In this document: piece after piece, positions 13,257 through 55,423 of the stretch
How the letters are laid out: each line of letters begins with the position of its first letter
How positions within the stretch are numbered: the first letter of the stretch is position 1
NCBI RefSeq assembly: GCF_028021195.1
Contig: NZ_CP115668.1
Location: 744,001-808,000 of the forward strand
DNA: 64,000 bases
Source of the DNA: Cutibacterium equinum
GTDB taxonomy: Bacteria; Actinomycetota; Actinomycetes; Propionibacteriales; Propionibacteriaceae
Direction of reading: 5' to 3'
Position numbers and translations under genes: made by a program
Notes under the pieces: model-generated
The model's database searches: none
The model's input: only the letters and a program-made list of their open reading frames with translations
Told to the model about the DNA's origin: nothing

Positions 13257-13685
13257 GTGTTTCTGGGTACGCACACTCCAAAGCTCGACGAAAAGGGCCG
13301 CTTCTTCCTGCCGGCGAAGTTCCGCGACGAGTTGGACGACGGGTTGGTCATCACCAGAGGCCAGGACAGGTGTCTGGCGGTCTACCCGACCGAAACCTTC
13401 GTGGAGATGACCCGGGAGATCGCCAAGGGTTCGGTGAGCGTCAAGAAGGTTCGTGACTACCAGCGCATGCTGGCAGCCGGAGCCAGCGACACCGCTCCTG
13501 ACAAGCAAGGGCGGGTCATGATTCCGCCAATGCTGAGGCGCTACGCCGGTCTCGACAAGGAGATCGTCGTAGTGGGTGCGATCACCCGTGTCGAAGTCTG
13601 GGACGCCGCCGAGTGGGAGAAGTACTCCGAAGCCCAGGAGGAGGCCTTCGCCGAGATGAACGAGGAGGTCTTCGCCGAACAGTGA
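13257..13685 (+). CDS. mraZ: Transcriptional regulator MraZ
   Basis: 142-aa AbrB-fold DNA-binding protein with two SpoVT-AbrB-like repeats: [17 protein letters not shown] near the N-terminus and [19 protein letters not shown] in the middle. GTG 13257 follows AGGAGG by 6 nt and starts the conserved [15 protein letters not shown]; a longer frame starts at 13194 but would run over the MraZ boxes. First gene of the division cluster. A 12-bp palindrome GATCACGTGATC overlaps its stop codon. Confidence 0.96.
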
Positions 13686-13834
13686 TCACGTGATCCGCGG
13701 CTCCGCTCCGACCGGGCACCCTGACACAACTTCCCCTGTGCCAGGTGGTCCAGCCGGAACGGAACCCCGAATCACGGGTCGTCGACACCGGTCGAGGACG
13801 TTGCTGGCACACCGTGCCGGGGAGGGGGATGCTC

Positions 13835-35561: not shown

Positions 35562-35567
35562 TAAAGT
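35562..35567 (+). promoter_or_regulatory. -10 box TAAAGT for the fluoride riboswitch transcript
   Basis: TAAAGT ends 7 nt before the first G of the aptamer core at 35575, so the transcript should begin at or just before the aptamer. No clear -35 element. Confidence 0.5.
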
Positions 35568-35574
35568 CCCCTAC

Positions 35575-35631
35575 GGCGATGGATCCCGCCAGGCTGATGC
35601 CGAACTGCCGATCTGGCTGATGGTTCCTACC
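35575..35631 (+). ncRNA. Fluoride riboswitch (crcB motif)
   Basis: GGCGATGG followed by TCCCGCC, then GGCTGATGGTTCCTACC, match the conserved blocks of the crcB-motif aptamer (GGnGAUGG, YCnCC, GCUGAUG, CCUAC). Two crcB fluoride-exporter genes follow, as expected. The 3' CCTACCC (35626-35632) is complementary to GGGTAGG (35643-35649), giving a 7-bp hairpin that would compete with aptamer pairing; this is the likely expression platform. The 390-bp pyk-crcB gap holds this element, the pyk terminator and two micro-ORFs. Confidence 0.9.
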
Positions 35632-35679
35632 CCGTGACGCGTGGGTAGGAGTCTGCCCTCGCCCCACTGATTGAGCGAG

Positions 35680-47439: not shown

Positions 47440-48936
47440 ATGACCTCCTCCACTGAGGCCTCCACCTCGAACCCGGTCGACATCGACCAGCAGAATGCCG
47501 CCAACACCGCCGATGGATCCGTGGCGGTTGACGACCTTGGCAGCCCGGAGGCCTTCCTGGCCGCTGTGGACGCCACCATCAAGTACTTCAACGACGGCGA
47601 CATCGTGTCTGGCACCGTCGTCAAGGTGGACCGCGACGAGGTTCTCCTTGACATCGGTTACAAGACCGAGGGTGTCATCCCGTCCAAGGAGTTGTCGATC
47701 AAGCACGACGTGGACCCCTTCGAGGTCGTCAACGTCGGTGACGAGATCGAGGCCCTTGTCCAGCAGAAGGAGGACAAGGAAGGTCGCCTCATCCTGTCCA
47801 AGAAGCGCGCTCAGTACGAGCGCGCCTGGGGCACGATCGAGCAGATCAAGGAAGAGGACGGCGTCGTCACCGGTACCGTCATCGAGGTCGTCAAGGGTGG
47901 CCTGATCGTCGACATCGGCCTGCGTGGCTTCCTCCCCGCATCCTTGGTTGAGATGCGCCGCGTCCGCGATCTCCAGCCCTACGTCAGCCAGGAGATCGAG
48001 GCCAAGATCATCGAGCTCGACAAGAACCGCAACAACGTTGTGTTGTCTCGTCGCGCCTGGCTCGAGCAGACCCAGTCCGAGGTCCGCCAGAACTTCCTGC
48101 ACGAGCTGCAGAAGGGGCAGATTCGCAAGGGTGTCGTCTCCTCGATCGTCAACTTCGGTGCCTTCGTCGACCTCGGTGGTGTGGACGGTCTGGTCCACGT
48201 CTCCGAGCTGTCCTGGAAGCACATCGACCACCCGAATGAGGTCGTCGAGGTTGGTCAGCCCGTCACCGTCGAGGTGCTGGACGTCGACATGGACCGCGAG
48301 CGTGTCTCGCTGTCTCTCAAGGCGACCCAGGAAGATCCGTGGCAGGCCTTCGCCCGTCTGCACCAGATCGGTCAGATCGTTCCTGGCAAGGTGACCAAGC
48401 TTGTCCCGTTCGGTGCCTTCGTCCGCGTCGAGGACGGCATCGAGGGTCTGGTTCACGTCTCCGAGCTGGCCGAGCGCCACGTCGAGATCCCCGAGCAGGT
48501 CGTCACCGTCAACGACGATGTCATGGTCAAGATCATCGACATCGACCTCGACCGTCGCCGCATCTCGCTGTCGCTCAAGCAGGCCAACGAGGGCATCGAC
48601 GTCCAGTCCGACGAGTTCGATCCGTCGCTGTACGGCATGACCGCCTCCTACGACGAGGACGGCAACTACATCTACCCCGAGGGCTTCGATCCGGAGACCA
48701 ACGAGTGGAAGCCGGGCTACGACGAGCAGCGCATCGCTTGGGAGCAGCAGTACGCCGAGGCCCAGGCTCGCTGGGAGGCTCACCGCAAGCAGGTCATCGA
48801 GGCCGAGCAGGCCGACCAGGAGGCCGCCCCAGTCGACAGCGCTGGCCAGTCCTCCTACACCAGCGGCCCGGCTGAGGGCTCGCTGGCGTCCGACGAGGCT
48901 CTGCAGGCTCTCCGTGACAAGCTGACCAACAACTGA
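47440..48936 (+). CDS. rpsA: 30S ribosomal protein S1
   Basis: 498 aa with four S1 (OB-fold) repeats beginning about residues 49, 135, 220 and 308 (GDIVSGTVVKVD, EDGVVTGTVIEV, GQIRKGVVSSIVNFGAFVDL, GQIVPGKVTKLVPFGAFVRV). The acidic C-terminal extension is typical of actinobacterial S1. S1 helps the 30S subunit bind structured or leader-poor mRNA. ATG 47440 has CGGAG at a long 11-nt spacing. Terminator follows. Confidence 0.96.
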   Translation: MTSSTEASTSNPVDIDQQNAANTADGSVAVDDLGSPEAFLAAVDATIKYFNDGDIVSGTVVKVDRDEVLLDIGYKTEGVIPSKELSIKHDVDPFEVVNVGDEIEALVQQKEDKEGRLILSKKRAQYERAWGTIEQIKEEDGVVTGTVIEVVKGGLIVDIGLRGFLPASLVEMRRVRDLQPYVSQEIEAKIIELDKNRNNVVLSRRAWLEQTQSEVRQNFLHELQKGQIRKGVVSSIVNFGAFVDLGGVDGLVHVSELSWKHIDHPNEVVEVGQPVTVEVLDVDMDRERVSLSLKATQEDPWQAFARLHQIGQIVPGKVTKLVPFGAFVRVEDGIEGLVHVSELAERHVEIPEQVVTVNDDVMVKIIDIDLDRRRISLSLKQANEGIDVQSDEFDPSLYGMTASYDEDGNYIYPEGFDPETNEWKPGYDEQRIAWEQQYAEAQARWEAHRKQVIEAEQADQEAAPVDSAGQSSYTSGPAEGSLASDEALQALRDKLTNN

Positions 48937-49055: not shown

Positions 49056-49964
49056 TTACTTGGTTGCGGCTTCCTTGAGGGTCTGGCCGTAATGCTGCTT
49101 GAACCAGGACGCGATGGTCTTGTTATCGCCCTCAGCGCCCTGTTTCACCATGTCCCAACGAGAACCCATACTCTTGAGCGTTTCGGTGATGTCGGTGCCG
49201 TCGTTTTTGGCGGCCTTGGTCATCTTTCCGCTGGCCAGATCAACGGTGAAGTTGTACTCCTGGCCCATGGCATCGCTGTACTTGTGCTTGATCATGGTGT
49301 TGGAGTTGAAGTCGTAGGTGTAGTGGTCCTTGAATGGCTTCTCGGTGCTCGGGTCAATCTTGGTGAGCACAACCTTGTGAGCGGATCGGTCGATGGAGAT
49401 GGCGAGGCCAGCGTCTGCAAATGGGGAACCGGTGGTGACAGTGTCAGTGAGCTTGCCGCCCTTCTCGACGAATTTGCCCGACGAGCCGTGACGCTTCGTG
49501 GCCGGAGCCCCTGCGCCGCGGTGGCTCTTCTTGGTGGCCTTGTGTGCCGAGGTGTGCGAGGGGCTTCCAGACTTCGTGGCCGGAGCCCCTGCGCCGCGGT
49601 GGCTCTTCTTGGTGGCCTTGTGTGCTGAGGTCTGTGACGAGTCGTGTCCCTTGTCCTGGGTCTTGTGCGCTGAGGTCTGAGGGGAGTACTCATTTCCCTT
49701 GCCCCCAGAGGTCGTAAAATCATCGTCCTCCTCCGTGACCGCGCTCGACGAGGCATGTGAGGGCGTGGAGGATACTGATGCCGCTGATGCAGGAGTGGAC
49801 GGCGACGCCACAGTAGATAGCGTGACAGACGAGGATGCCACAGCAGACGGGTTGCCAGACGGTATGGCGGACACTGACGAACCAGATCCGGAGTGGCCAC
49901 ACGCGGTCGCGGTGAGGGACAGTCCGAGAACGAGTCCGGTTGTGAGTAACTTGCGCGGTTTCAT
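49056..49964 (-). CDS. Putative lipoprotein with 26-aa tandem repeat
   Basis: 302 aa. Signal peptide LVLGLSLTATAC with the lipidation Cys about residue 22, then a Ser/Thr/Val-rich linker. Two near-identical 26-aa repeats (TSAHKATKKSHRGAGAPATK plus six variable residues) and a diverged TSAHK copy follow. A C-terminal beta-rich domain (VVLTKIDPSTEKPFKDHYTYDF) resembles no family I recognise. AAGGAGA 6 nt before ATG 49964. The start overlaps the stop of the CobN-like remnant (ATGA), so the two were probably one operon. Likely surface or cell-wall exposed. Confidence 0.8.
   Translation of the reverse strand: MKPRKLLTTGLVLGLSLTATACGHSGSGSSVSAIPSGNPSAVASSSVTLSTVASPSTPASAASVSSTPSHASSSAVTEEDDDFTTSGGKGNEYSPQTSAHKTQDKGHDSSQTSAHKATKKSHRGAGAPATKSGSPSHTSAHKATKKSHRGAGAPATKRHGSSGKFVEKGGKLTDTVTTGSPFADAGLAISIDRSAHKVVLTKIDPSTEKPFKDHYTYDFNSNTMIKHKYSDAMGQEYNFTVDLASGKMTKAAKNDGTDITETLKSMGSRWDMVKQGAEGDNKTIASWFKQHYGQTLKEAATK
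49494..49633 (-). repeat. 78-bp tandem repeat inside the lipoprotein gene
   Basis: The segment starting 49494 recurs at 49572 with a 78-bp period and almost no base changes over about 60 bp. It encodes the basic TSAHKATKKSHRGAGAPATK units. Near identity at DNA level implies recent duplication and possible copy-number variation. Confidence 0.9.
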
Positions 49965-50734
49965 TGGTGTTCTCCTTGGGGTTGATTGTTTCCGTGTGGT
50001 CCGTCCTCCAGACCGGCGTCGAGGTCGATCAGGAGGTCGGTGAGTTCCTGGATGCGCGACTGGTCGGGATGCCAGTAGCTGCGTCGTTGCATCGTCAAGA
50101 GACTTGTGACGACCGACATCAGAGCTGTGGGATTGTTGGCTCGCAGACGTTCCCGGACCGCCAGGTCGTCGATGTAGCACTCGTGCATGCGCTCGATCGC
50201 CCATTCGGGTACCGCTTTCGCAGTGGCCGCCAGCCCGAGGACATTGGTGAATCTCTTGGCGATCTCGTCTCCACCGTGCTGGTCGTGGGAGAGCATGGCG
50301 TCGATCCACGCCGGGTTGAGGGCTCGAGTTCGCAGGCCGCGCACCGTGGAGTCCTCGATGTCGTCGACGTGGATGGTGGGGTCGACGGTGTCACAGATGA
50401 CGGCCTGGGGACGCTTGCCCCGGGTCCGTTCGACCCCGGACATCAGTCCGCCGATGAACTCGTAGTAGTGGTCGAGGTCGCTGATCTCGTACTCGTGGTT
50501 CGACCGTGCCTGGGTGACCAGTTCGACCTGGCCGAGATGGGCGTCGAACAGCTCCGGAGCCGCATCACCATGGTGGGTCCGGGTGTAGACGTGGTTCATG
50601 CGGCGCGCGTAGATCTCGGCGAGGTCGCCGTCAGCACCCCAGGAGTTCGTCTCGACGATGGAGGTCAGCGAGGTGCCGTAATCAGTCGGGGAGGGGCCGA
50701 ACAACCGCGCCCGGGACAGCTCCGGATTCTCACC
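49961..50734 (-). pseudogene. CobN/HmuS-like chelatase remnant (C-terminal fragment)
   Basis: About 255 codons match only the C-terminal end of CobN/ChlH-type large chelatase subunits: NPELSRARLFGPSPTDYGTSL, YARRMNHVYT, ISDLDHYYEFIGGLMSGVERTRGKRP, LNPAWIDAML and an HGGDEI segment. Full-length members exceed 1100 aa. Upstream the frame closes at TAA 50780-50782 and no further CobN-like sequence appears before the DtxR box, so the N-terminal three quarters are gone. The listed 247-aa reading frame would start at TTG 50704 without a ribosome site. CobN-like HmuS removes iron from haem in some anaerobes, which fits the adjacent haem operon; this link is inference. Confidence 0.8.
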
Positions 50735-50893
50735 GGTATTCGTTGTCGAAGAGACGGTTGCGTGGCAACGATCGGAAGCTTAGCAAGCCTGAGTGGGAGT
50801 CGTCCCGGGCCCCCGTATCTCCTCTTGTCAGCGCGGTTGTAACCAACGTTCCAGCCCGCGCGCGTCAAGGAGTGAGACCCTTGCGCATAGCAC

Positions 50894-50912
50894 TTAGGTA
50901 AGGCTACCCTAC
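50894..50912. promoter_or_regulatory. DtxR/IdeR iron box upstream of htaA
   Basis: TTAGGTAAGGCTACCCTAC matches the DtxR/IdeR consensus TTAGGTTAGGCTAACCTAA at 16 of 19 positions. It lies 47 bp before the htaA ATG and in the divergent region with the CobN-like remnant, so it could repress both directions when iron is plentiful. A 5-bp hairpin GGCTC/GAGCC (50918-50932) sits between box and gene. The 224-bp divergent region holds no other gene. Confidence 0.85.
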
Positions 50913-50958
50913 AGGTGGGCTCAAGGAGAGCCTCATGTGTTAGCAAAGGGGACGTCTC

Positions 50959-52371
50959 ATGACCACATCGGCCATGCGCAGACTCGTCGCCAGCGTGCTC
51001 GGGGCCATGGTGGCTCTGGCCGGAGTTCTTGTTTCTCCGGCAGCGTGGGCGGCCGACGGTCCGACTGTGACCGTCTCATCAGCATCTCGCGATGGTGGCA
51101 AGGTCACCATCACCGGACAGGGATTCGCGGCCGAAGGGACCGGCGTCTACGTCGCCGTCGCTCCCTCATCGGTCCAGGAGTTTTATGGCAATTCGGACAA
51201 GTTCGTCGGATATGACCCAAACGCGTCCATGACGGAATCTGCCTCCACGATCTGGGTCTACCCACCGGCGATGAAGGCCGTGGGCTCCAAATTCGCCCAG
51301 GGTGCACCGATGGCTGCAGACGGTTCGTTCACCATCGAGATGTACGTGCCTGCCTTCGAGAAGGGTAAGGACTACGTCGTCCTGACCACCAAGGCCCACG
51401 GCGTCGGGAAGCGCGACAAGACCAATGACACTCGTACCACGGTGACCTATGAGGCTGTTCCGGCTTCCCCGGCACCAGGTGCGTCGGAGTCCCCGTCGGC
51501 TCCAGCCAAGCCCAGCACCCCTGCCAAACCGAGCACCCCGGCCAAGCCGGGCGTTCCTGCCAAGCCCAGCACCCCCGCCAAGGCCTCGTCCACGATCAAG
51601 CCTGCTCCGGCCAAGCCGGCTGCTACCACCCCGGCTCGCCACCGTACCGTCACCAAGAAGGTCTGCACCGCTGGCCAGTCCAAGGTCACCGCAGGTTCCC
51701 TGAAGTGGGGTCTGCGCACGTCATTCACCAGCTACCTGCGTGGTCCGATCGCCAATGGCTCCTGGAAGCTGTCGAACGGCGCTGAATGGGACGGCTCGGC
51801 CTTCACCTTCCCGCTGAGCAACGGATCCTTCGATCCCGCCACGAAGTCGGGCACCCTCAACTATTCCGGGACCGTCCACATGACTGGTCACAACGGCATC
51901 CTCGACATGACGATCGCCAACCCCACCTTGGTTGTCAAGGGATCGACGGGTCACGTGTACATGGACGTCAAGTCCTCCTCGATGGACGGCAAGAAGACCG
52001 ATTACGGACGAGTTGACTTCGCCACCTTCTCCACGTCCACCTCGGGAAACGTCAAGATCGCTGGCTCCTCGGTCAAGCTCACCGCCCAGGGGGCGAAGGC
52101 CTTCGCCGGGTTCTACAAGACTGGTGAGCCGATGGATTCGCTGTCCTCGAGCCTCACCCTCTCCACCGAGAAGGTGTGCCACGACGTCACCGTCGATGCC
52201 GTCACCGGCAAGATCATCAGCGGGGGCAGTGGCTCTGGACACACCCTGCCCGCCACCGGTGCCCTCGGACCATCGACCGCCCGCGGTGACCTCGCTGCTG
52301 CTGGCAGCGTGGCCTTCATCGTCGTCATCTCGGCGGCCCTCGCGTGCCGGCGCCGCTACTGCGAGCTCTGA
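50959..52371 (+). CDS. htaA: HtaA-domain haem-binding surface protein with LPATG anchor
   Basis: 470 aa. Sec signal peptide (about residues 1-31, ending SPAAWAADG), an immunoglobulin-like N-terminal domain, a PAKPST repeat linker (about 182-208), and an HtaA domain (about 230-360: LKWGLRTSFTSYL, GSWKLSNGAEWDGSAFTFPLSNGSFDPATKSG). C-terminal LPATG (430-434), a hydrophobic segment and CRRR tail form a sortase signal. Expected to take haem from host proteins and hand it to HmuT. AAAGGGGA 8 nt upstream of ATG. First gene after the iron box. Confidence 0.9.
   Translation: MTTSAMRRLVASVLGAMVALAGVLVSPAAWAADGPTVTVSSASRDGGKVTITGQGFAAEGTGVYVAVAPSSVQEFYGNSDKFVGYDPNASMTESASTIWVYPPAMKAVGSKFAQGAPMAADGSFTIEMYVPAFEKGKDYVVLTTKAHGVGKRDKTNDTRTTVTYEAVPASPAPGASESPSAPAKPSTPAKPSTPAKPGVPAKPSTPAKASSTIKPAPAKPAATTPARHRTVTKKVCTAGQSKVTAGSLKWGLRTSFTSYLRGPIANGSWKLSNGAEWDGSAFTFPLSNGSFDPATKSGTLNYSGTVHMTGHNGILDMTIANPTLVVKGSTGHVYMDVKSSSMDGKKTDYGRVDFATFSTSTSGNVKIAGSSVKLTAQGAKAFAGFYKTGEPMDSLSSSLTLSTEKVCHDVTVDAVTGKIISGGSGSGHTLPATGALGPSTARGDLAAAGSVAFIVVISAALACRRRYCEL
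51502..51582 (+). repeat. 18-bp repeat encoding the PAKPST linker of HtaA
   Basis: Four to five imperfect 18-bp units encode PAKPST/PAKPGV in tandem. Proline/lysine linkers of this kind span the cell wall. Confidence 0.8.
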
Positions 52372-52394: not shown

Positions 52395-52428
52395 GGTGGG
52401 GGTGAGGTCAGCCGACCTCGCCCCCACC
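52395..52428 (+). terminator. Strong intercistronic hairpin, htaA/hmuT
   Basis: A 15-bp stem (52395-52409 with 52414-52428, one G-T pair) closes a 4-nt loop AGCC. There is no T-run, and hmuT starts 21 nt later. It may partly terminate transcription or stabilise the htaA mRNA, so that surface receptor outnumbers transporter. Confidence 0.6.
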
Positions 52429-52449
52429 ATCTCCCTGAAAGGTCATCCC

Positions 52450-53562
52450 ATGCCTCGGATGCGCCGTCGAATTGCCGGAGTCGGCCTCGTCCTCGCGATG
52501 CTGGTTGCCGGGTGTGGCCCTTCCTCCGCACAGTCCCAGACATCTCCCCAATCCGTGGCCTCCGCGGCGTCGTCACCGTCGTCACCGTCGGCGCACCCGA
52601 GCACTCCCGCCACGACGGCGCCGAAGCTGCCCGACCCGCGTAGCCTTCGCGGCCTCACCGAGGTGGCGGAACTGTCTGACCCGGCACCCGTCAATGGGTC
52701 GTTCAACCAGAAGCTTCCGGTTACGGTCACTGACGTCGAGGGCAACAAGGTGACGATCACCGACACCTCCCGAATCCTGGCCCTCGACCTCTATGGCACC
52801 CTCTCCCGTACCCTCATCGGACTGGGCATGGGAGACAAGATCGTCGGGCGCACCGTCTCCTCAACCGAGGACCAGTTACACGATCTGCCCGTCGTCACCG
52901 AGAACGGCCACGTCCTCAACGTTGAGGCTATTGCCGCCCTCAAGCCGTCGGTGATCATTGCTGACCGTAGCGTTGGCCCTCGTGAAGCCCTTGATCAGCT
53001 TCGCAAGTCCGGGATTCCCGTTGTTCTCGTCGACCCGCATCGCAGTGTCGACACCACCCCCGATCTCATCCGCACGGTCGCGAAAGCAGTAGGTATGCCT
53101 GCTGCCGGTGAGGCCCTGGTGAAGCGCACCCAGGGCGAGATCGATGCGGCCAAGAAGCAGATCGCCCAGTGGGCACCGAAGAAGCCGATGAAGGTCGCCT
53201 TCCTCTACGTGCGTGGCACGGCCGGCATTTTCTTCATCCTCGGGTCCGAGGACGGGGCCAGTGAACTCATTCACGGTGTGGGAGGCGACGATGTTGCCGG
53301 GGACAAGGGAATCAAGAGCGTTGCTCCCGCCAATGCGGAATCCCTCGTCTCCCTCAACCCGGATGCCATCTTCGTCATGAAGGCCGGGCTGGCCTCCACC
53401 GGCGGCATGAAAGGTCTGCTGGCCAGAGCTGGAGTCGCCAACACCACTGCCGGCAAGAACCAGCGCGTCATCTCCATCCCGGACGGTATCTCCCTGTCCT
53501 TCGGACCGCAGACCGGCGAGGTGCTCACCTTGGTCGCCAAGGCACTGTACGGGGTCAAATGA
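52450..53562 (+). CDS. hmuT: Haem ABC transporter, substrate-binding lipoprotein
   Basis: 370 aa. Lipoprotein signal VLAMLVAGCGPS (Cys about residue 21), a Ser/Pro linker and a class III periplasmic-binding fold (SRILALDLYGTLSRTLIGLGMGDKIVGRT, NVEAIAALKPSVIIAD). Receives haem from HtaA at the outer membrane face. ATG 52450 has GAAAGG upstream. The stop overlaps hmuU. Confidence 0.9.
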   Translation: MPRMRRRIAGVGLVLAMLVAGCGPSSAQSQTSPQSVASAASSPSSPSAHPSTPATTAPKLPDPRSLRGLTEVAELSDPAPVNGSFNQKLPVTVTDVEGNKVTITDTSRILALDLYGTLSRTLIGLGMGDKIVGRTVSSTEDQLHDLPVVTENGHVLNVEAIAALKPSVIIADRSVGPREALDQLRKSGIPVVLVDPHRSVDTTPDLIRTVAKAVGMPAAGEALVKRTQGEIDAAKKQIAQWAPKKPMKVAFLYVRGTAGIFFILGSEDGASELIHGVGGDDVAGDKGIKSVAPANAESLVSLNPDAIFVMKAGLASTGGMKGLLARAGVANTTAGKNQRVISIPDGISLSFGPQTGEVLTLVAKALYGVK

Positions 53563-54617
53563 GCGCGCTCGCCCAGCCCGCGAAGGCGCGGACGGGAATG
53601 GCCCGACGAGCGCGAACCCGAGTCGTCACGGTAAGCCTCCTGGTCGTCATCCTGTGTTGCCTGGTGCTGGTCTCGGCGATGGTCGGGCAGTACCGAGTCG
53701 AGGCTGCTGATGTTGTCAGAGCCGTGTTCGGGCGTTCGTTGTCCGACCCGATGGCGACGTCAGTGCTGTGGCAGATTCGGTTCCCGCGTATCGTCCTGGG
53801 CCTGTTGGTGGGAGCCAGCCTTGCGGTGGCCGGAACTGTCATGCAGGCGCTGTTCTCCAACCCTCTTGCTGAACCCGGTGTCATCGGCGTCTCGTCGGGG
53901 GCTGCGGTGGGGGCGTCGCTCATGATCGTGGTGGCTCCCACCTTCCTGTCCGGATTCGGGGTTCCCGCGGCTGCCTTCGTCTCGGGATTACTGGCGGCCA
54001 GCGCCGTCTACGTCATGGCACGCTCCGGACAACGGGCGGAATCGACGACCCTCGTGCTGACCGGCATCGCGGTGACGGCGATCTGCTCGGCGATCACATC
54101 GGTGTCGACCTTCGTCGCCCCGACGACCGCACGAGACCAGATCGTCTTCTGGCAGATGGGCTCCCTCAACGGGGCCACCTGGAATCAGGTGGCGACAGTG
54201 GGGACGGTGGCCGCAGTGGGCATCGTCTGGGCCCTGCTCATCGCCGCCAAGCTCGACACCTTGGCCCTGGGGGAGAGGGCTGCCGGACATCTCGGCATCA
54301 ACGTCAATCGGCTGAGGTTGTCGTCGATCGCCCTGACAGCCCTGCTCACCTCTGCCGCGGTGGCCTACGCCGGGGTCATCACCTTCGTCGGACTGATCGT
54401 GCCCCATGTGCTTCGGCTGATCATCGGACCGGCGAACACATGGCTCATCCCGGCCTCCTTGCTGGGCGGATGTGTGTTGGTGACCTTGTCAGACGTCGCT
54501 GCTCGCACCCTCGTTCCGTACGCCGACCTTCCCATCGGCATCTTCACCGCCATCGTGGGCGGGCCAACCTTCTTCATCCTGTTACGACGGGGGATGCGAC
54601 GAGGGGGAGCGTTGTGA
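53559..54617 (+). CDS. hmuU: Haem ABC transporter, permease
   Basis: 352-aa FecCD-family permease with about ten transmembrane helices. Family segments: RFPRIVLGLLVGASLAVAGTVMQALFSNPLAEPGVIGVSSGAAVGA, and YAGVITFVGLIVPHVLR. ATG 53559 overlaps the hmuT stop by 4 bp. Confidence 0.93.
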   Translation: MSALAQPAKARTGMARRARTRVVTVSLLVVILCCLVLVSAMVGQYRVEAADVVRAVFGRSLSDPMATSVLWQIRFPRIVLGLLVGASLAVAGTVMQALFSNPLAEPGVIGVSSGAAVGASLMIVVAPTFLSGFGVPAAAFVSGLLAASAVYVMARSGQRAESTTLVLTGIAVTAICSAITSVSTFVAPTTARDQIVFWQMGSLNGATWNQVATVGTVAAVGIVWALLIAAKLDTLALGERAAGHLGINVNRLRLSSIALTALLTSAAVAYAGVITFVGLIVPHVLRLIIGPANTWLIPASLLGGCVLVTLSDVAARTLVPYADLPIGIFTAIVGGPTFFILLRRGMRRGGAL

Positions 54618-55423
54618 TGATCCGTGCCCGTGATGTGTCCTTCCGGTACGGGGAGCGCACGATCCTCGACGGGGTCGATCTCGACGTCGAGGCCGGGGAA
54701 TTCGTCGGCCTGCTCGGGCCCAACGGGGCCGGCAAGACGACCCTGTTGAGCGTGCTGTGTGGAGACCTTGACGGGTGGCAGGGAAGCGTCGAACTCGACG
54801 GGGTGCCGCTGCAGGACCTCACGCGACCCGAGTTGGCCCTGCGCCGCTCTGTCATGCCCCAGTTCAGCGAGTTCCCGTTCTCCTATCTGGTTCACGACAT
54901 CGTCATGATGGGACGTGCCCCGCATCCGCGCAGTTTCGATGACGCCCTCCTCGTCGAGGCTGCGATGGAGCGCACCGAGGTCACCGCCCTGGCAGACCGG
55001 GAGGTCACCGCCCTGTCAGGAGGCGAACGCTCCCGGGTGACCCTGGCCCGGGTGCTGGCCCAGGACGCCCGCTGTGTCTTTCTCGACGAGCCGACCGCTG
55101 CCCTCGACATCTGTCATCAGGAACGCACCATGGCGATCTGTCATGACCTGGCTGCAGCGGGATGTGCCGTGGTTGCAGTGATGCATGACGTGGGATTGGC
55201 GGCAGCCTGCTGCGACCGCATCGCCCTGCTCTCCGAAGGCAAACTCGTGGCCGTCGGCACACCCGAGGAGGTGGTCACGGAGAGTAACCTCAGCCGCGTG
55301 TACGGATGGCCCATTGACGTCATCACATTGCCGACCGGGGAAATTGTCGTCCTGCCCAGACGGTCCCGGACGACCATCCGAGACGAGCGAAGGACACCAT
55401 GCCCACAGATACAACAGCGGTGA
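54614..55423 (+). CDS. hmuV: Haem ABC transporter, ATPase
   Basis: 269 aa. Walker A GPNGAGKTTLL, Q-loop PQFSEF, signature LSGGERSRVTLARVLAQ, Walker B CVFLDEPTAALD and switch His in MHDVGLAAA. Start is GTG 54614 (overlapping the hmuU stop) or ATG 54617. Its 3' end overlaps the next ABC gene by 25 bp, indicating one transcript. Confidence 0.93.
   Translation: MMIRARDVSFRYGERTILDGVDLDVEAGEFVGLLGPNGAGKTTLLSVLCGDLDGWQGSVELDGVPLQDLTRPELALRRSVMPQFSEFPFSYLVHDIVMMGRAPHPRSFDDALLVEAAMERTEVTALADREVTALSGGERSRVTLARVLAQDARCVFLDEPTAALDICHQERTMAICHDLAAAGCAVVAVMHDVGLAAACCDRIALLSEGKLVAVGTPEEVVTESNLSRVYGWPIDVITLPTGEIVVLPRRSRTTIRDERRTPCPQIQQR

What the first reader, a model, noticed from the sequence alone, without database searches (positions are those of the whole stretch)
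49961..50912. Decayed CobN/HmuS-like chelatase beside a haem-uptake operon
Seen: about 255 codons match only the C-terminus of CobN-type large chelatase subunits; the frame closes upstream at 50780 and the rest is missing. It is divergent from htaA-hmuTUV across a DtxR box. Known: HmuS, a CobN homologue in anaerobe hmu operons, removes iron from haem. Inference: an ancestor of this strain carried an iron-controlled haem dechelatase together with HtaA/HmuTUV, and this lineage lost it. If relatives keep a full gene, that would be a CobN-like haem dechelatase in Actinobacteria.
Basis: partly seen in the sequence, partly recalled or inferred. Interest (0 to 1): 0.72.

Follow-up and report, generated by a model that had tools for sequence, protein, structure and literature searches.

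The report
Remnant of a lost metal-chelatase operon
A skin-type bacterium keeps only the tail end of a large metal-handling enzyme; relatives show that it came from an operon that imports a metal compound and probably works on its metal, and that here the operon's leader was a vitamin-B12 switch rather than an iron switch.

Summary
An open minus-strand frame (closed by a stop at 50780-50782) encodes only the last ~235-240 residues of a CobN/ChlH-type subunit, divergent from a genuine htaA-hmuTUV operon with a DtxR-type box at 50894-50912. The inference is half right. A full-length relative exists in the same genus (G001; frame-broken in C. modestum) and in other Propionibacteriaceae, in a conserved operon: binding protein-permease-ATPase-CobN-lipoprotein-ChlD-ChlI. 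The lipoprotein next to the fragment belongs to that operon, so this lineage did lose a chelatase. But the full relatives are not HmuS: they lack the His254 position, the Met-rich insertion and membrane anchors. They are not cobalamin CobN either. And the lost operon was not simply iron-controlled: the upstream end of the open frame is the 5' half of an AdoCbl riboswitch (50712-50741, minus). The sister genome G002 keeps more of that riboswitch, joined to the lipoprotein's last codons, so the two deletions are independent. Relatives carry DtxR-like boxes, an AdoCbl riboswitch or (Virgibacillus) Zur-type boxes. Best reading: relic of an importer-linked, ATP-dependent metallo-tetrapyrrole chelatase whose metal differs by lineage. 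Substrate and direction of reaction are untested.

The parts
49961..50713 (-). C-terminal remnant (~235-240 aa) of a CobN/ChlH-type class I chelatase large subunit; no stop or frameshift inside; lacks the region with the GTHG motif
49056..49964 (-). Lipoprotein (302 aa), start overlaps the fragment's stop; partner gene of the chelatase operon, open frame intact, good ribosome-binding site by eye
50712..50741 (-). 5' half (core) of an AdoCbl riboswitch, fused to the chelatase remnant by a deletion
50894..50912 (.). DtxR-type iron box upstream of htaA
50959..52371 (+). htaA, haem-binding surface protein (divergent neighbour)
52396..53562 (+). hmuT, haem-type binding protein; not an orthologue of the chelatase operon's binding protein
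53559..54617 (+). hmuU, FecCD-type permease (about 36% to G001's chelatase-operon permease, against 59-63% between G001 and the other genera's)
54617..55423 (+). hmuV, ATPase (start inferred within the ORF listed at 54440-55423)

Best explanation
The feature is a deletion relic. In the common ancestor of this Cutibacterium and its nearest congener G002, an operon lay on the minus strand between rpsA and htaA: an AdoCbl-riboswitch leader, then genes ending in a CobN-type chelatase and a lipoprotein (by analogy with relatives: binding protein, permease, ATPase, CobN, lipoprotein, ChlD, ChlI). In this genome a deletion joined the middle of the riboswitch to the last ~240 codons of the chelatase gene; in G002 a different deletion joined the riboswitch to the last ~20 codons of the lipoprotein gene. 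The intact operon most likely imported a metal complex through an ABC importer and let the cytosolic three-subunit ATP-dependent chelatase take the metal out of, or put it into, its tetrapyrrole. Removal fits all three kinds of regulator seen on relatives (derepressed when Fe, Co/B12 or Zn is scarce); insertion fits only the B12 case. Shown: homology, gene order, riboswitch half, different break points in the two genomes. Inferred: former importer and ChlD/ChlI genes at this place, substrate, direction, metal. The remnant itself is unlikely to be a chelatase (it lacks the part with the GTHG motif); the lipoprotein may still work.
For: Fragment 39-42% identical to nine clade-A C-terminal stretches, 29.5% to the genome's own CobN, 25% to HmuS; groups with clade A + Virgibacillus type at 99/95 in a 93-row tree; grouping with the Cutibacterium CobN rejected, p-AU 9e-8. 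Lipoprotein directly after the chelatase gene in 9 of 10 clade-A loci and in the window. Riboswitch: G002 AdoCbl 29.6 bits, E 0.0011, partial; window 28 nt, 12.3 bits, E 0.3, cut at 3'; 65 of 71 positions identical to G002 at 50712-50782; the A. jensenii core 25-mer, at up to 3 mismatches, occurs once in the window (with 2), 0.01 expected; A. jensenii's operon is led by an AdoCbl riboswitch, 55 bits. G002 keeps the lipoprotein's last codons at the junction (64 bases, 72%, E 8e-4).
Against: Rfam gives no match on the uncut window stretch and only E 0.3 when the stretch is cut at the junction; the riboswitch claim rests on orthology with G002, whose own match is below the gathering score. The fragment has a long branch; a 27-row tree does not exclude grouping with HmuS (p-AU 0.439) and leaves its place beside clade A unresolved; grouping with the G001/G004 genes is borderline rejected (p-AU 0.047), so it may come from a sister operon and not from theirs. 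Whether importer and ChlD/ChlI genes stood here is inferred from relatives. In G001/G004 the riboswitch-like element sits before an HtaA paralogue, not before the binding protein.
Confidence: 0.78

Rival explanations
1. Relic of an iron-controlled HmuS-type haem dechelatase that worked with HtaA/HmuTUV.
For: Next to htaA-hmuTUV across a DtxR box. Clade-A operons in two genera (G062; G173 and the near copies G074/G158) have DtxR-like boxes upstream: 4 of the 5 best places among 741,344 positions, nearest edge 37-163 bases from the first gene. The clade-A binding protein scores best with IsdE (haem) in NCBIfam, 96.5 bits, but under the cut-off of 298.65. G001 and G004 have an HtaA paralogue beside the operon, frame-broken in G004. 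A fragment-HmuS clade is not rejected on the C-terminal stretch alone, p-AU 0.439.
Against: AdoCbl riboswitch at the fragment's own leader and an AdoCbl-like element upstream of the HtaA paralogue in G001. HmuS features not met in full-length relatives; HmuS is among the least similar rows. The clade-A importer is not orthologous to HmuTUV and its binding protein is most like siderophore-type proteins in the PDB searches.
Confidence: 0.2
2. Relic of a cobalt-inserting chelatase that completes imported incomplete corrinoids (a salvage branch of B12 synthesis).
For: AdoCbl riboswitch on A. jensenii's operon, AdoCbl-like element before the HtaA paralogue in G001, relics in the G002/window leader.
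Against: The same operon has DtxR-like boxes elsewhere, and the related Virgibacillus operon Zur-type boxes. G001's protein misses the cobaltochelatase cut-off (573.6 against 822.05) while the genome's own second CobN passes (899.8).
Confidence: 0.25
3. A functional short protein kept by selection, working with the lipoprotein.
For: No stop or frameshift; 21 of 21 superfamily-invariant and 54 of 82 clade-A-invariant positions kept; coding-like GC by codon position. In G076 a 394-aa CobN N-terminal-like piece also stands alone near the lipoprotein.
Against: Present in 1 of 9 Cutibacterium genomes; the first start is a TTG inside a conserved motif; the break differs from G002's, so the truncation looks younger than that split and an open frame needs no selection.
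Confidence: 0.15

Closest known systems
Class I chelatases CobN-CobST / ChlH-ChlI-ChlD (cobalto- and magnesium chelatase)
   Same: Large subunit plus ChlI and VWA-bearing ChlD in one operon; GTHG motif; best PDB matches of the full relative are ChlH 4zhj (2.4e-126) and CobN 9uk9 (5.2e-115)
   Different: Operon begins with its own ABC importer and holds a lipoprotein; G001's protein meets no curated CobN or BchH cut-off; control elements differ by lineage
HmuS haem dechelatase of Bacteroidota (PDB 9d26; PMC12583661, abstract, outline and 12 passages seen)
   Same: Homologous large subunit (9d26 8e-89); conserved GTHG histidine
   Different: No Met-rich insertion, no His254, no membrane anchors; has ChlI/ChlD genes beside it
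BtuS family (Rodionov 2003, known here only through a passage of PMC6460266)
   Same: CobN-related third type proposed for salvage of metalloporphyrins
   Different: Described there for Bacteroides; not compared residue by residue here
P. aeruginosa PA1922-PA1925 (PMC4542158, passages seen)
   Same: CobN-like gene in a zinc-starvation (Zur) operon with an uptake receptor, role undetermined
   Different: TonB-dependent receptor and ExbD homologue in the passages, no ABC importer or ChlI/ChlD named there
HtaA-HmuTUV haem uptake
   Same: Lies next door; G001/G004 hold an HtaA paralogue beside the chelatase operon
   Different: Separate transporter; chelatase genes are not part of it

Membership tests
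HmuS | Methionine-rich insertion between body halves | tested here: not met
   THG-to-GGD distance 198-283 aa in 7 full clade-A relatives against 598 in an Aureivirga HmuS; the region is missing in the fragment itself
HmuS | Haem ligands Met79 and His254 | tested here: not met
   His254 column holds G or S in all 7 clade-A proteins; the Met79 column could not be aligned with confidence
HmuS | Transmembrane segments at both ends | tested here: not met
   Maximum 19-residue hydropathy at most 1.71 (first 60) and 0.36 (last 60) in 7 clade-A proteins against 2.57 and 2.22 in HmuS
HmuS | Closest in sequence to HmuS | tested here: inconclusive
   By blastp the fragment is 25% identical, rank 92 among 93 rows, and the 93-row tree puts it with clade A; but a fragment-HmuS clade is not rejected in the 27-row tree, p-AU 0.439
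Cobalamin CobN (TIGR02257) | Curated score cut-off 822.05 | tested here: not met
   Full relative P0002 573.6; fragment 155.5 (too short to judge); own second CobN 899.8 passes
Cobalamin CobN (TIGR02257) | Lies among cobalamin biosynthesis genes | tested here: inconclusive
   Neighbour tables of ten clade-A loci show importer, lipoprotein and ChlD/ChlI; other neighbours were only partly identified
Magnesium chelatase BchH (TIGR02025) | Curated score cut-off 829 | tested here: not met
   P0002 698.2
Importer-chelatase operon (clade A, defined here) | CobN gene followed by the lipoprotein gene | tested here: met
   9 of 10 loci and the window
Importer-chelatase operon (clade A, defined here) | Importer upstream, ChlD and ChlI downstream | tested here: not met
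   Absent in the window between rpsA and htaA: taken as lost
AdoCbl riboswitch (RF01482) | Rfam gathering score 50 | tested here: not met
   Partial relics: G002 29.6 bits; window 12.3 bits with the related RF00174, nothing in the uncut stretch; met in A. jensenii, 55 bits

The most novel reading that the evidence does not exclude
There is a family of importer-linked, ATP-driven (CobN-ChlI-ChlD) dechelatases in Propionibacteriaceae and some Bacillota that strip a metal from an imported metallo-tetrapyrrole. The wanted metal switches between lineages and can be read from the control element: iron (DtxR-type box), cobalt/B12 (AdoCbl riboswitch, here with an HtaA paralogue behind the same type of element, which would make HtaA domains bind something other than haem), zinc (Zur box). 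The chelatase is lost again and again, leaving the lipoprotein and pieces of the enzyme behind.
Probability: 0.3. Interest if true: 0.8.

Novelty: new variant of a known kind. Interest (0 to 1): 0.52.

Why it matters
Anaerobes are known to take iron out of haem with HmuS; whether Gram-positive bacteria have an ATP-driven counterpart is open. The operon family described here gives intact enzymes from named organisms with three different control elements on one architecture, so the metal each one serves can be predicted and tested. It also corrects a tempting inference: standing beside a haem operon and an iron box did not make this gene iron-controlled.

Tried and rejected
HmuS membership: rejected on features of full-length relatives; on the C-terminal stretch similarity speaks against it but one tree test does not exclude it. 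Plain cobalamin CobN: rejected by cut-off and tree. HmuTUV as the importer of the lost chelatase: rejected by identity. The open frame upstream of 50712 as chelatase sequence: rejected; it is riboswitch. An Rfam look at the uncut window stretch found nothing, and the gathering-score scan missed the G001 element that the sensitive scan then gave at 38.2 bits. Fold search with the lipoprotein model gave no match at E 0.001 or better; its profile has no convincing PDB relative (best E 0.031), and neither lipoprotein given to Pfam passed a cut-off. The binding-protein model matches many siderophore-, citrate- and haem-binding proteins and does not settle the substrate. A class-wide search (394 genomes drawn, E up to 1e-100, list cut short) had no match above 606 bits, the best being G298 and G509, whose genes fall outside clade A in the tree. 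No B12 riboswitch at the genome's own CobN operon. The strong riboswitch in P. acidifaciens lies before a divergent gene, a methylmalonyl-CoA-mutase-like protein by eye, and was not counted for the operon. The G006 remnant is 88-93% identical to the Cutibacterium CobN and not of the fragment's kind. Paper searches showed no report of this operon in the titles, abstract starts and passages that I saw; that covers only the held library.

Rows dropped: from the 95 distinct C-terminal pieces two were left out of the 93-row tree (a second copy of the window fragment and a partial duplicate of P. acidifaciens); the 27-row tree is a chosen subset.

Full report
Place and context. The window is part of a 2.51-Mb genome. 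It shares a genus with G004, whose contig length equals that of Cutibacterium modestum M12 (908,018), so the genus is Cutibacterium; the species is probably C. acnes, which is recalled and not shown by a call. Between rpsA (47440-48936) and htaA (50959-52371) lie, on the minus strand, the fragment (49961 to about 50713) and a 302-aa lipoprotein (49056-49964) whose start overlaps the fragment's stop.

Observation. The fragment matches Pfam CobN-Mg_chel over positions 857-1088 of 1090 with E 5.9e-67. It has no internal stop. It keeps 21 of 21 positions that are invariant in a chosen set of 22 sequences (9 clade A, 2 Virgibacillus type, 3 type B, 8 CobN) and 54 of 82 positions invariant in the 9 clade-A rows. 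The htaA-hmuTUV neighbours and the iron box are real.

Full-length relatives. Of 9 Cutibacterium genomes, 8 have a PF02514 match. Seven have a separate CobN at another place; G006 has only a 99-residue remnant of that CobN (88-93% identical to it); G008 has none. The fragment is only in the window's genome. G001 has a second, full gene (1300 aa, P0002) and C. modestum a frame-broken one, both on the far side of coaE: after coaE comes an HtaA paralogue, then on the opposite strand ChlI, ChlD, lipoprotein, CobN, ATPase, permease, binding protein. In 197 family genomes further relatives at about 43-49% identity turned up in G062, G173, G074, G158, G185, G068, G085 and a partial one in G098. Five of these carry names through matching contig lengths: Propionibacterium sp. 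oral taxon 192 (G062), [Pseudopropionibacterium] massiliense (G074), a Propionibacteriaceae MAG (G185), Acidipropionibacterium jensenii (G068), Propionibacterium acidifaciens (G085). The lipoprotein follows the chelatase gene in 9 of 10 loci; in P. acidifaciens only a weak lipoprotein-like stretch (41 residues, E 2.3e-6) was seen, upstream of CobN. This adjacency ties the window's pair to that operon.

Not HmuS, not cobalamin CobN. Against an Aureivirga HmuS (1087 bits to PDB 9d26) the 7 full clade-A proteins tested lack the insertion, the His254 position and membrane anchors, features named in passages of PMC12583661. The genome's own second CobN passes the cobaltochelatase cut-off, P0002 does not. 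In the 93-row tree the fragment joins clade A and two Virgibacillus-type proteins at 99/95, on a long branch. A 27-row tree is less clear: grouping with HmuS is not rejected (p-AU 0.439), grouping with clade A is not rejected (0.269), grouping with the G001/G004 genes is borderline (0.047), and grouping with the Cutibacterium CobN is clearly rejected (9e-8). By blastp HmuS is rank 92 among 93 rows.

The leader. G002, the nearest congener (84-88% DNA identity), has about 140 bases between the end of the rpsA match and the start of the shared htaA leader; they hold the last ~20 codons of the lipoprotein (64 bases, 72%, E 8e-4), joined to a stretch that matches window 50712-50951. Across this junction runs an AdoCbl riboswitch core, 29.6 bits, E 0.0011 in 371 bases, below the gathering score of 50. 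In the window the same core runs up to 50712 and then turns into chelatase codons. At 50712-50782, 65 of 71 positions agree with G002 (58 of 75 in the best-aligned rest of the leader), and the truncated core gives 12.3 bits, E 0.3 (nothing in the uncut stretch). The core of the A. jensenii riboswitch, used as a query at up to 3 mismatches, is found once in the window, at 50712-50736, with 2 mismatches (0.01 expected). Since the two genomes break at different places, I take the deletions as independent. G007, G001, G004 and G005 have the htaA leader right after rpsA with no insert; G003, G006 and G008 have no DNA match to the htaA-hmuTUV part there.

Control elements in relatives. A weight matrix from six Cutibacterium htaA boxes, run over 741,344 positions of 21 loci, puts 4 of its 5 best places upstream of a clade-A binding-protein gene, nearest edge 37-163 bases away (L050, L051, L052, L053; the last two are near copies; two genera in all); the fifth lies before the P. 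acidifaciens CobN gene. Of the nine clade-A loci with that upstream region, G001 and G004 have a weak, half-like site (rank 8), and L054, L055 and L056 nothing notable there (p 0.11, 0.97, 0.05). A. jensenii (L055) instead has an AdoCbl riboswitch, 55 bits, just before the operon, and G001 an AdoCbl-like element, 38.2 bits, before the HtaA paralogue. In Virgibacillus halotolerans and one relative (G592) the operon binding protein-permease-ATPase-ChlI-ChlD-CobN follows Zur-type boxes, and a further box lies before the COG0523-like gene downstream; in V. halotolerans a ZnuA-family gene with two more boxes stands upstream (the box consensus and the COG0523 label are recalled). Among 100 genomes around V. 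halotolerans, itself included, 3 had a match, one of them a scrap.

Repeated loss. The lipoprotein family has 14 strong hits (E below 1e-50) in 13 of 197 family genomes. In 10 it stands beside clade-A CobN or, in the window, its relic. G045, G107 and G076 are not among the genomes with a P0002 match: in G045 and G107 the lipoprotein follows permease and ATPase with only a stub resembling the first codons of CobN between; in G076 a 394-aa CobN N-terminal-like piece (Pfam positions 3-247, E 1.1e-23) stands alone nearby, though tblastn with three clade-A proteins did not find it, so it may be another kind of CobN. The lipoprotein model is confident from residue ~60 on (pLDDT about 96), strands followed by a long helix, with no PDB match at E 0.001 or better.

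Mechanism. The importer brings in a metal complex; the cytosolic CobN-ChlI-ChlD set acts on it with ATP. Removal of the metal agrees with derepression under iron, B12 and zinc shortage alike; insertion agrees with B12 shortage only. This is inference. Prior hints exist: BtuS was proposed for metalloporphyrin salvage (passage in PMC6460266), and a CobN-like gene sits in the Zur regulon of P. aeruginosa with an undetermined role (passages in PMC4542158 and PMC13083405). Searches for this operon in print are those; besides PMC12583661 (abstract, outline, 12 passages) I saw passages of PMC4542158, PMC13083405, PMC2770081, PMC6460266 and PMC8123684 and otherwise listings only.

Noticed in passing
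G000:C1:75638-79018 (L017): The genome's own intact CobN (passes TIGR02257) also sits behind binding-protein, permease and ATPase genes and before a ChlI/D-type gene: a second importer-linked chelatase operon; no riboswitch found in front of it.
   Followed up: partly
L014:2329-2480 +, L015 counterpart: An HtaA paralogue with two HtaA domains stands behind an AdoCbl-like riboswitch in G001; the same core is present in C. modestum (read, not scored). It suggests an HtaA protein tied to B12 and not to haem.
   Followed up: partly
L188:4683-5867 (G076): A 394-aa stand-alone CobN N-terminal-like protein (Pfam only) next to binding-protein and lipoprotein genes.
   Followed up: partly
L009:1501-1797 (G006:C1:354885-355181): A 99-residue remnant of the ordinary Cutibacterium CobN (88-93% identical) in another Cutibacterium: an independent loss of the other CobN.
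   Followed up: yes
window 49056-49964: The lipoprotein has a long low-complexity linker with a stretch around SAHKATKKSHRGAGAPATK twice (seen by eye); Tandem Repeats Finder reports no array.
   Followed up: partly
window 35566-35636 + and 13682-13787 +: Fluoride riboswitch (41.7 bits) and mraW RNA (69 bits) over Rfam gathering scores.
   Followed up: no
L056:2365-2575 -: Strong cobalamin riboswitch (88.8 bits) in P. acidifaciens before a divergent gene that looks by eye like methylmalonyl-CoA mutase small subunit, next to the chelatase operon.
   Followed up: partly
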